Both the position numbers and the translations under genes were made by a program. From assembly GCA_007135805.1 (NCBI GenBank), contig SLID01000129.1, positions 1 to 35,225 of the forward strand: a stretch of DNA of 35,225 bases, read 5' to 3'. Position 1 is the stretch's first letter. Every line of letters begins with the position of its first letter. The notes under the pieces were generated by a model. The model was not told the origin of the DNA and made no database searches. It saw only the letters and a program-made list of their open reading frames with translations. This stretch comes from Candidatus Omnitrophota bacterium. Lineage in GTDB: Bacteria > Omnitrophota > Gorgyraeia > Tantalellales > Tantalellaceae. Below, one piece after another: positions 14,984 to 17,384 of the stretch.

Positions 14984-15610
14984 ATGCTATTCGCGATAAT
15001 TACTCTGGTTTTGGCCTATATTCTAGGTTCTTTCCCTACGGCTTTCATTTTCGGAAAGGTAATGCGTGGTATAGATATTCGTGAGCACGGTAGTGGTAAC
15101 GCGGGAGCTACTAATGTTGGGCGGGTCATAGGTAAGTGGCCAGGTCTTGCGGTATTTGTCATCGACTGCGCTAAAGGATTTATAGCGGTGACCTTTTTGC
15201 CGCGTCTGGTGTATGGTCTTTTGCCGGGAGATCCATACTACAACAACATTTTTTACTTGCTATTGGCGGCCAGCGTGGTTTCCGGTCACATCTGGACGTG
15301 TTTTTTGCGTTTCAAGGGCGGAAAAGGGGTGGCCACCACAGCCGGAGCGATGCTGGGACTTTTCCCAGCCATATTTTTTTCCGGACTGATAGTTTGGGTG
15401 ACGGTTTTTTATCTCTGGAGATACGTTTCCCTGGCGTCCCTGGCGGCCGCGGTGAGCCTGCCTGTAGTTTCTATACTTGTCAAAGAGGAGCTCAGCACTA
15501 CTGTTTTTCTTGCTTTCCTGGCTTTCCTGGGTGTATTTTCACATAGACAGAACATTAAAAGACTGATCCAGGGAACTGAGAACAAATCCGTTAAGCTTAA
15601 AAAAAGATAG
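14984..15610 (+). CDS. plsY: Acyl-phosphate glycerol-3-phosphate acyltransferase
   Basis: AYILGSFPTAFIFGK, DIREHGSGNAGATNVGRVIGK, FKGGKGVATTAGAMLGL. Confidence 0.95.
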   Translation: MLFAIITLVLAYILGSFPTAFIFGKVMRGIDIREHGSGNAGATNVGRVIGKWPGLAVFVIDCAKGFIAVTFLPRLVYGLLPGDPYYNNIFYLLLAASVVSGHIWTCFLRFKGGKGVATTAGAMLGLFPAIFFSGLIVWVTVFYLWRYVSLASLAAAVSLPVVSILVKEELSTTVFLAFLAFLGVFSHRQNIKRLIQGTENKSVKLKKR

Positions 15611-15620
15611 TTTTTTCCTC

Positions 15621-15648
15621 TTGCAATATCATAAATTTCTGGTATACT
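15621..15648 (+). promoter_or_regulatory. Sigma70-type promoter upstream of the orphan small-protein unit
   Basis: TTGCAA - 16 bp - TATACT (15643-15648). Confidence 0.6.
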
Positions 15649-15723
15649 GTAGATGTTAGGTTTCCCGAAAGGGATTTTTTAAACACCTCTTAATTAACTG
15701 TTTTAAAAAGGAAAACAAAAGAA

Positions 15724-16083
15724 ATGAAGAAGATAGTCCACAAAGAAAAAGTTGGGGGCAATCCACAGAAAAGAGAGATATCTGTGGATGAAACTATATA
15801 TCGTAGAGGGGCAACTATCAAAAAAAGGCGTTGTTGCAAGTATTACGTAAAAGATCGTTTTCGTTCGCGGGACGTAACGGAATTACGGGCGTGGATAAAC
15901 GAGAACAAGAACGAGGGTCTGAAAAAGAATTGCCACGTATTTCGGGAGATAAATACCAGCACAGGGGTGAACAAGGTCATGTGCAAAGTAATGGGAGAGT
16001 TCTTCGCTGTCTGTGGAGAGACGGCGTTCAGGATAATTTACATAAATGAGATAAAGATGGAACTTGACAACAGTAATAACTAA
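15724..16083 (+). CDS. Hypothetical protein, 119 aa, basic, 5 cysteines, no recognised domain
   Basis: Own promoter and GGA-containing RBS-like stretch; Ile codons mostly ATA (8 of 10 by hand), matching the neighbours. Confidence 0.65.
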   Translation: MKKIVHKEKVGGNPQKREISVDETIYRRGATIKKRRCCKYYVKDRFRSRDVTELRAWINENKNEGLKKNCHVFREINTSTGVNKVMCKVMGEFFAVCGETAFRIIYINEIKMELDNSNN

Positions 16084-16099
16084 CACGGACAGGTGGATC

Positions 16100-16213
16100 A
16101 TGAGGCATGTTTTGGAAAGTTTTAAAAGATTGAAATATATGTTTGAGGTTTTTTACCGGATAAGTGTGATAAGGTTCCGTTTGGCTTTCATGGAATTTAC
16201 AGCTAAGGTCTAA
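16100..16213 (+). CDS. Candidate 37-aa small protein MRHVLESFKRLKYMFEVFYRISVIRFRLAFMEFTAKV
   Basis: ATG preceded by purine-rich GGACAGGTGGA; open to TAA 16211-16213; located between the 119-aa ORF and the terminator; below the ORF-track cutoff. Confidence 0.4.
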   Translation: MRHVLESFKRLKYMFEVFYRISVIRFRLAFMEFTAKV

Positions 16214-16221
16214 CTCCCAAG

Positions 16222-16238
16222 GCCGCCATTGTGGCGGC
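16222..16238 (+). other. Perfect 7-bp GC-rich hairpin GCCGCCA-TTG-TGGCGGC
   Basis: Inverted repeat read directly; immediately precedes the terminator hairpin. Confidence 0.6.
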
Positions 16239-16249
16239 TCTTACCTCCC

Positions 16250-16294
16250 GGAAGAGAGGGGCGGCGGGTAGCTTCCCCTCTCTTTCCTCTTTTA
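16250..16294 (+). terminator. Intrinsic terminator
   Basis: GGAAGAGAGGGG / CCCCTCTCTTTCC stem (about 12 bp with one bulged T; 13-nt loop) followed by TCTTTT. Confidence 0.7.
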
Positions 16295-16355
16295 ATGAAC
16301 TTCATATGGCACCAAAGCGTCTATGATCCTTGAGACTACTACTATAGAGTTGTGA

Positions 16356-16384
16356 TTGACTACAAAAATCATCTGTGCTAAACT
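16356..16384 (+). promoter_or_regulatory. Sigma70-type promoter for gpsA
   Basis: TTGACT - 17 bp - TAAACT, ending 13 nt before the gpsA ATG; an alternative -10 CATAAT lies at 16387-16392. Confidence 0.65.
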
Positions 16385-16397
16385 CTCATAATCTGTT

Positions 16398-17384
16398 ATG
16401 GGAAGAATAAGTATAATAGGTGACGGCGGGTGGGGAACCTCACTGGCTATCCTATTAAATTCAAAGGGTTTAGAAGTTACCTTATGGAGCGCTTTTCCGG
16501 AGTATGCCCGGGAGCTTAAGGCAAGGCGTGAGAACGTCAAATTTTTAAAAGGGATCGGCATCCCGGAAAAGATCAACATAACTTCTGATGTGGCGCAGGC
16601 AGCTGGGGCGGATTTCACTTTTTTTGTCGTGCCGTGTGAACATCTCAGAAGTGTGGTTTCCAGGTTTGCCGGTCTGGAGCTCGGCAGGCTGATAAGCGCC
16701 ACAAAAGGAATAGAGAACGGTTCGTTGAAAAGGGCCTCTGAGGTGATCGGCGAATATTTTCCCGGGCGTGATGTTTGCGCTCTTTCAGGTCCAACCATTT
16801 CCGGGGAAGTCGCGAGGGGCATGCCCACCGCGGTTGTGGTAGCTTCCGCTGAAGCGGAATGCCAGGATGTCGCCTCGATCCTTATGACTGAGACGTTCAG
16901 GGTATACACTTCGAGCGATATTCTGGGAGTGGAACTCGGCGGGGCCGTCAAGAACGTTATTGCTATTGCTTCAGGGATATCTGATGGTATGGGTTTTGGC
17001 ACCAATACTAAAGCCGGGATCCTTACAAGAGGGCTGGCCGAGATAACGAGGCTTGGTGTCGCTATGGGAGCCGAAAGCGATACTTTCAGAGGACTTAGCG
17101 GACTGGGTGACTTGGCGACTACCTGTATGAGCGGTGAAAGCCGTAACAGGTGGTTCGGGGAGCAGATCGGTAAAGGCCGTGATGCCTCGAGTGTAAGAAA
17201 AGAAACGGAAATGGCGATAGAAGGGGAAAAGACTTCCGGGGCGGTCAATTGCCTGGCGGAAAAGTTCCAGGTAGATATGCCCATAGCCCGGAAAGTTTAT
17301 GAGGTAATTTACGGGAATGTCGATCCGGCGACCGCTGTCAGAGAACTTATGACAAGGGGAGCCAAGCGGGAAGATTACAGTTAA
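16398..17384 (+). CDS. gpsA: Glycerol-3-phosphate dehydrogenase [NAD(P)+]
   Basis: ISIIGDGGWGTSLAILL (GxGxxG), SATKGIENG, ALSGPTISGEVARGMPTAVVVAS, ELGGAVKNVIAIASGISDGMGFG. Confidence 0.96.
   Translation: MGRISIIGDGGWGTSLAILLNSKGLEVTLWSAFPEYARELKARRENVKFLKGIGIPEKINITSDVAQAAGADFTFFVVPCEHLRSVVSRFAGLELGRLISATKGIENGSLKRASEVIGEYFPGRDVCALSGPTISGEVARGMPTAVVVASAEAECQDVASILMTETFRVYTSSDILGVELGGAVKNVIAIASGISDGMGFGTNTKAGILTRGLAEITRLGVAMGAESDTFRGLSGLGDLATTCMSGESRNRWFGEQIGKGRDASSVRKETEMAIEGEKTSGAVNCLAEKFQVDMPIARKVYEVIYGNVDPATAVRELMTRGAKREDYS

What the first reader, a model, noticed from the sequence alone, without database searches (positions are those of the whole stretch)
15621..16294. Self-contained orphan transcription unit between plsY and gpsA
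In a window where every other gene has a recognisable function or family, this about 670-bp segment has its own promoter (TTGCAA-16-TATACT), a structured leader, a 119-aa ORF with no recognised domain, a further 37-aa ORF and a terminator region. It is more AT-rich than its flanks and bounded by independent signals on both sides. This is the best candidate here for an undescribed lineage-specific small-protein or RNA system.
Basis: partly seen in the sequence, partly recalled or inferred. Interest (0 to 1): 0.62.

Follow-up and report, generated by a model that had tools for sequence, protein, structure and literature searches.

The report
Conserved small-protein operon in Omnitrophota
Between two lipid-synthesis genes of an uncultured Omnitrophota bacterium sits a small, separately transcribed gene unit whose main protein recurs in about 60% of the sampled genomes of this phylum, matches no known protein family or solved fold, and in some relatives sits behind a switch for the signal c-di-GMP, which suggests an undescribed part of how these bacteria control their surface.

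Summary
Promoter, 119-aa ORF, 37-aa ORF and terminator are at the stated places, and a separate gpsA promoter follows. The "structured leader" is not unusually stable as a fold, but it carries a conserved sequence element. "Orphan" is wrong. The 119-aa protein has homologues in 16 other same-family genomes, 98 of 147 relatives and 230 of 384 Omnitrophota genomes, nearly always single copy and mostly just after plsY. Genomes without it have plsY and gpsA adjacent (54 bp apart in one same-family genome, overlapping by 4 bp in others), so the unit is dispensable and inserted or lost cleanly. No Pfam, NCBIfam, PHROG, PADLOC or PDB match; confident models (pLDDT 89) show six long beta strands with no solved counterpart. 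The 37-aa ORF is conserved in the family; the 3' end carries a covarying hairpin plus an anti-Shine-Dalgarno-like ACCUCC in 11 of 16 members. Its leader belongs to a recurrent Omnitrophota leader that also precedes very large surface-type ORFs; in one sister family a c-di-GMP-I riboswitch sits in the plsY-ORF gap. Best reading: an undescribed, post-initiation-regulated small-protein operon in the c-di-GMP/surface regulon. Biochemical function is inferred only.

The parts
15621..15648 (+). Promoter of the unit: TTGCAA-16-TATACT with TG before the -10 box
   Evidence: scan; most of the 16 same-family loci carry an equivalent 81-96 nt before the ATG
15663..15680 (+). Leader hairpin TCCC-GAAA-GGGA followed by T6 (terminator-like). 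The T-run is conserved in about 50 of 92 leaders; a stable hairpin before it in roughly a third of those
15675..15711 (+). Recurrent leader element: T-run, then about 26 nt from its start TTTAAAAAG (15702-15710)
   Evidence: 53 leaders aligned; offset 26 or 27 in 41 of 53; pattern 166 hits vs 72 for the reversed control in 59 genomes
15724..16083 (+). 119-aa basic (pI 9.65) protein, founder of an undescribed Omnitrophota family; model: strands 2-10, 16-27, 30-47, helix 51-64, strands 69-77, 82-97, 100-116
   Evidence: homologues; model pLDDT 89.5; pI
16100..16213 (+). 37-aa second ORF, conserved as ..ALWKLNxIKxQ.. in the family; in relatives its start lies from 8 nt inside to 35 nt after the end of the first ORF
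   Evidence: homologous ORF in all 16 family loci examined; weaker in four loci of family f8 (E 1e-6 to 1e-3)
16219..16243 (+). 3' UTR hairpin 1, with compensatory changes across the family
16243..16248 (+). ACCTCC (in CTTACCTCC): anti-Shine-Dalgarno-like motif between the two hairpins; in 11 of 16 family loci at the same place, not conserved at this place outside the family
16250..16293 (+). Intrinsic terminator of the unit (long GC hairpin and T-rich tail)
   Evidence: (region 16214-16298, z = -4.08)
16356..16400 (+). Separate promoter of gpsA (TTGACT-17-TAAACT) directly before its ATG at 16398; right boundary of the unit

Best explanation
The segment is a conserved, independently transcribed two-gene operon with a regulated leader and a terminator that ends in a small RNA-like 3' element. 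Shown by computation: both ORFs are real genes; the 119-aa protein is a single-domain, soluble, basic, nearly all-beta protein with no known relatives; the unit is inserted cleanly between plsY and gpsA and is dispensable; its leader element recurs in front of very large surface-type ORFs; in one sister family its gene is preceded by a c-di-GMP-I riboswitch. Inferred: transcription starts at the unit's promoter and is then gated in the leader (attenuation at the T-run, and in some lineages c-di-GMP sensing), so that the protein is made together with surface and adhesion proteins. The 119-aa protein most likely acts in the cytoplasm as a small nucleic-acid-binding or adaptor protein that adjusts expression or export of that surface programme. 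The 37-aa peptide, hydrophobic and amphipathic, may tie it to the membrane. The ACCUCC segment may pair with Shine-Dalgarno sites. My separate estimates: real conserved operon 0.97; post-initiation regulation through the leader 0.7; part of the c-di-GMP/surface regulon 0.5; nucleic-acid-binding protein 0.3.
For: Homologues in 98 of 147 relatives at E below 1e-12 and 230 of 384 genomes of the phylum sample. 70 of 98 lie on the same strand within 1 kb downstream of plsY, median gap 179 bp; most others are on a different contig from plsY. Genomes lacking it show plsY-gpsA adjacent: 54 bp in same-family G006, 4-bp overlaps in G034, G044, G065. Class-wide promoter, T-run and TTTAAAAAG at fixed spacing while the distance from the T-run to the ATG runs from 42 to 288 nt. 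The same element precedes ORFs of 1266, 1955, 2584, at least 2445 and at least 4308 aa with N-terminal membrane segments. c-di-GMP-I riboswitch above Rfam's threshold in the plsY-ORF gap of L070 and L065, sub-threshold c-di-GMP-I-GGC in L149 and L115; in these genomes c-di-GMP-I riboswitches also precede large secreted proteins, including one of the family that carries the leader element (L237). Basic charge: median pI 9.6, net +8, over 93 members. Second ORF conserved. 3' hairpin covariation above all 500 shuffles and all slid controls.
Against: No Rfam riboswitch is recognisable in the window's own leader; the c-di-GMP link rests on one sister family plus weak matches. c-di-GMP-I riboswitches are abundant in the phylum (130 of 147 genomes), so one near a given gene is less surprising. 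About two thirds of the leaders with the T-run show no stable hairpin before it, so simple termination cannot be the general mechanism. The leader element occurs in at least one genome without the protein (G023), so the protein is not required for the element. Nothing tests nucleic-acid binding directly; high pI is weak evidence. Expression is unmeasured.
Confidence: 0.45

Rival explanations
1. The protein is an accessory or regulator of phospholipid synthesis that acts on PlsY and/or GpsA, and sits between their genes for that reason.
For: Conserved position between plsY and gpsA over the whole group.
Against: It has its own promoter and terminator, unlike the overlapping plsY-gpsA of genomes without it. 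In some families it is not found next to plsY (f9, f19, f33) or not next to gpsA (f3, f12, f26). Genomes without it keep plsY and gpsA. Its leader resembles those of surface-protein genes, not lipid genes.
Confidence: 0.15
2. The protein is itself the factor that recognises the TTTAAAAAG leader element (an autoregulating antiterminator or RNA-binding protein for a surface-protein regulon).
For: Its gene carries the element, the element recurs at very large ORFs, and the protein is basic.
Against: The element is present in G023, which lacks a detectable homologue, and family f9 has the protein without the element in its leader.
Confidence: 0.2
3. It is a small housekeeping protein (for example a ribosome- or RNA-polymerase-associated factor) whose leader regulation is incidental.
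For: Single copy, basic, vertically inherited over the phylum, near lepA, der and other core genes.
Against: Absent from about 40% of genomes, including many above 90% complete, and cleanly lost in same-family G006.
Confidence: 0.2
4. It is a diverged PilZ-type c-di-GMP receptor.
For: A true PilZ gene follows gpsA in f17 genomes that lack the protein, and one sister family has a c-di-GMP riboswitch.
Against: No PilZ match by HMM, no PilZ fold among the best structural matches, no RxxxR or (D/N)xSxxG motif in the alignment.
Confidence: 0.05

Closest known systems
c-di-GMP-I riboswitch-controlled genes (Rfam RF01051)
   Same: Homologues in family f25 sit directly behind such riboswitches, and other large secreted-protein genes in these genomes do too
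   Different: No such riboswitch is recognisable in the window itself; the encoded protein matches no known c-di-GMP output
Promoter-proximal transcription attenuators (hairpin plus T-run leaders)
   Same: Hairpin and T6-8 run shortly after the promoter in the window and many relatives
   Different: About two thirds of leaders with the T-run lack a stable hairpin; a second conserved block TTTAAAAAG lies at fixed distance after the T-run, which ordinary attenuators do not need
3' UTR-derived small RNAs with C-rich, anti-Shine-Dalgarno seeds (RsaE-like in principle; from own knowledge)
   Same: Hairpin, single-stranded CUUACCUCC, then intrinsic terminator
   Different: No Rfam match, no evidence that a separate RNA is made, motif limited to one family and absent from 5 of 16 members
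Giant ORFs of Omnitrophota (Seymour et al. 2023, PMC10066038)
   Same: The same leader element precedes very large ORFs with N-terminal membrane segments
   Different: The unit here encodes small soluble proteins. The ORFs seen here are shorter than the paper's 20-kb limit where complete; several run off the fetched stretch or contig

Membership tests
Any Pfam, NCBIfam, PHROG or PADLOC protein family | HMM score above curated cut-off or significant E-value | tested here: not met
   57 members scanned against Pfam and NCBIfam, representatives against PHROGs and PADLOC; only chance-level matches
Any protein of solved structure | Sequence-profile or fold match | tested here: not met
   Best profile E = 4; best PDB fold TM by query length about 0.4 at rmsd 7-12 A, no match at E below 1e-3
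PilZ domain | RxxxR and (D/N)xSxxG motifs; six-stranded barrel matching PilZ structures | tested here: not met
   No HMM hit and motifs absent from the alignment; no PilZ among the listed fold matches
c-di-GMP-I riboswitch (RF01051) | Covariance score at or above 35 bits in the window leader | tested here: not met
   No match in 15500-16450; met in relatives L070 (37.0 bits) and L065 (36.0 bits)
Intrinsic terminator / attenuator leader | GC-rich hairpin immediately followed by T-run after the promoter | tested here: inconclusive
   Window has a 4-bp GNRA-loop hairpin plus T6; hairpin better than shuffles in 16 of 53 leaders
3' UTR-derived sRNA | Conserved RNA structure with seed and terminator | tested here: met
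   Hairpin covariation 0 of 500 shuffles as high, slid controls lower; invariant CCTCC in nine aligned loci
3' UTR-derived sRNA | A separate processed or transcribed short RNA acting in trans | not testable with these tools
   Needs RNA-seq and target tests

The most novel reading that the evidence does not exclude
An Omnitrophota-specific post-initiation control system: a recurrent leader element (promoter, T-run, TTTAAAAAG at fixed spacing), used interchangeably with c-di-GMP riboswitches, switches on very large surface proteins together with a small basic beta-protein of new fold that acts in the same switch, while the 3' end of its mRNA is a regulatory RNA that mimics the 16S rRNA anti-Shine-Dalgarno sequence.
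Probability: 0.15. Interest if true: 0.85.

Novelty: new variant of a known kind. Interest (0 to 1): 0.58.

Why it matters
Omnitrophota are widespread, uncultured, mostly ultra-small bacteria with suspected predatory or symbiotic lifestyles and giant surface proteins, but how they regulate these is unknown. This unit gives a widely conserved, undescribed protein family with a confident model of no known counterpart, a leader element that marks a candidate surface regulon, and a c-di-GMP link in one branch. Each can be tested with synthetic constructs or metatranscriptomes. It also shows that small intergenic ORFs missed by family databases can be conserved over most of a phylum.

Tried and rejected
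Orphan gene or chance ORF: rejected. Phage or mobile origin: no match in viral contigs or phage records. Matching single-protein patterns in genome contigs gave only the same record as G001, Candidatus Aadella gelida. PilZ relationship: rejected (see membership test). Internal duplication of the protein: suggested by the two beta-beta-beta halves but not supported by half-against-half profile comparison. Leader as a stable conserved fold: rejected for the window. ACCUCC motif as a class-wide feature: rejected, limited to the family. The protein as a strict requirement for the leader element: not supported (G023 has the element but no homologue). Hidden diverged homologue after plsY in genomes lacking it: none found in 19 genomes.

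Full report
WHAT IS THERE. The window lies in a 1.63-Mb genome (G000) of an Omnitrophota bacterium; a same-family genome is Candidatus Aadella gelida. Between plsY (ends 15610) and gpsA (starts 16398) lie: promoter TTGCAA-16-TATACT, a 75-nt stretch to the ATG, a 119-aa ORF (15724-16083), a 37-aa ORF (16100-16213), a hairpin, CTTACCTCC, a strong terminator hairpin, and then a separate gpsA promoter. The unit is AT-rich (38% GC against 50%).

IT IS NOT AN ORPHAN. A single-sequence search found homologues in 64 of 147 relatives, 35-47% identical within the family. Profiles built from these reached 99 of 147 and then 98 at E below 1e-12, and 230 of 384 genomes drawn from the phylum. Almost all have a single copy. 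The order lepA-lepB-pgsA-(der)-plsY-ORF-gpsA-hom-thrC is kept far outside the family. Of 98 genomes, 70 have the ORF on the same strand within 1 kb downstream of plsY; in 22 the two genes are on different contigs, in 4 plsY was not found, and in 2 they are about 3 kb apart. Even very weak matches (E about 1e-5) sit directly after plsY, which supports their homology independently.

CLEAN PRESENCE/ABSENCE. In same-family G006 (92% complete) plsY is followed after 54 bp by gpsA; in G034, G044 and G065 the two overlap by 4 bp. In the 19 ORF-less genomes examined no diverged copy was found after plsY. The unit is therefore dispensable and was gained or lost as a block.

THE PROTEIN. No match to Pfam, NCBIfam, PHROGs, PADLOC or PDB sequences. 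AlphaFold2 models of the window protein (pLDDT 89.5, pTM 0.73) and of a short 110-aa relative (pLDDT 89.2, pTM 0.75) agree: six long strands; the window protein has a helix in the middle that the short relatives lack. Foldseek finds nothing convincing in the PDB (best TM by query length about 0.4, rmsd 7-12 A, no E below 1e-3), and the one BFVD match with E below 1e-3 has TM 0.31. The family is basic (median pI 9.6, net charge +8) and the window protein has no membrane segment.

THE SECOND ORF. A 33-50 aa ORF follows in all 16 same-family loci examined, starting from 8 nt inside to 35 nt after the first ORF, with the core ALWKLNxIKxQ. Two family members left out of the model match it (L025 3e-17; L037 7e-5), as do four loci of family f8 (1e-6 to 1e-3). 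It is a hydrophobic, positively charged peptide.

THE LEADER. A promoter is present between plsY and the ORF through most families. After it comes a run of 6-9 T, and about 26 nt from the start of that run TTTAAAAAG. The offset is 26 or 27 nt in 41 of 53 aligned leaders, while the distance from the T-run to the ATG ranges from 42 to 288 nt. The TTTA part was used to find the motif, so only the spacing, the TAAA block before it and the G/T after it are independent evidence. A hairpin before the T-run beats shuffles in 16 of 53. In 59 genomes the pattern scores 166 hits against 72 for the reversed control (overlapping T-run hits counted in both). Of 20 other places inspected, about half have a good element close upstream of long ORFs with an N-terminal membrane segment; extended, these are 1266, 1955, 2584, at least 2445 and at least 4308 aa. 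Seymour et al. (PMC10066038) describe giant ORFs as common in Omnitrophota and propose roles in adhesion or predation.

THE C-DI-GMP LINK. In family f25, c-di-GMP-I riboswitches score above Rfam's threshold in the plsY-ORF gap (L070 37.0 bits, L065 36.0 bits); L149 and L115 score below threshold with the related GGC model. The window itself has none. In f3, f12, f26, f28, f32, f35 many members have a different leader (CCCCACCAGCC.., then a GCCGGG..CCCGGC hairpin), without a gathering-level Rfam match there in 13 loci. The phylum is rich in c-di-GMP-I riboswitches (130 of 147 genomes); those inspected mostly precede secreted or large proteins, including one IQDAHC-type protein of the kind that elsewhere carries the leader element. 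In f17, which lacks the ORF, a PilZ gene (Pfam E 2.8e-7) follows gpsA.

THE 3' ELEMENT. In 11 of 16 family loci ACCTCC or GCCTCC lies at the same place after the 37-aa ORF, behind a hairpin with compensatory changes (covariation 0.398 vs 0.233 shuffled, 0 of 500 as high; slid controls at most 0.176) and before the terminator. It is complementary to Shine-Dalgarno sequences. It is not conserved at this place outside the family.

MECHANISM. Shown: conserved operon, its position, leader motif, riboswitch in relatives, 3' structure. Inferred: transcription is gated in the leader, the protein is made with the surface programme and acts as a small cytoplasmic regulator or adaptor. I hold the last step at about 0.3 and list rivals.

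VERDICT. Most of the interest lies in the phylum-wide undescribed protein family and in the shared leader element.

Noticed in passing
L182-L187, L189, L190, L194 (also L222-L229): The leader element T-run + TTTAAAAAG stands before very large ORFs with N-terminal membrane segments; several share an N-terminal module ..HIQDAHCNxxAQ..LEGGxGDYDLSxFTSI.. without a significant Pfam match.
   Followed up: partly
L065 2077-2160, L070 3548-3627: c-di-GMP-I riboswitch exactly between plsY and the homologue of the 119-aa gene in family f25.
   Followed up: yes
L118, L119, L121, L124, L131, L133-L138, L140, upstream of the ORF: Another structured leader, CCCCACCAGCCAYGG..GGGG followed by a GCCGGGUURCC..GGYARCCCGGC hairpin; its 3' part resembles the end of c-di-GMP-I riboswitches. 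Possible unrecognised riboswitch variant.
   Followed up: partly
L234, L235, L238, L239: c-di-GMP-I riboswitches in same-family genomes precede large ORFs that look like filamentous-haemagglutinin-type two-partner secretion adhesins (from own knowledge of the sequence; not tested by HMM).
   Followed up: no
L209 and L216, downstream of gpsA: PilZ-domain gene between gpsA and hom in family f17, which lacks the 119-aa gene.
   Followed up: partly
L220 (G120), directly after plsY: The leader element is present after plsY but is followed by a different, secreted-looking 139-aa ORF instead of the family protein.
   Followed up: no
L025 and L028: Homologues in G017 and G014 read with one in-frame stop (TAG, TGA). 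In G017 it falls near the natural C-terminus; in G014 it is internal: decay or assembly error not resolved.
   Followed up: no
L125 and L151 (G045): One of the few genomes with two copies of the family, the second (120 aa) at an unrelated place; f23 genomes also carry a second weak copy.
   Followed up: no
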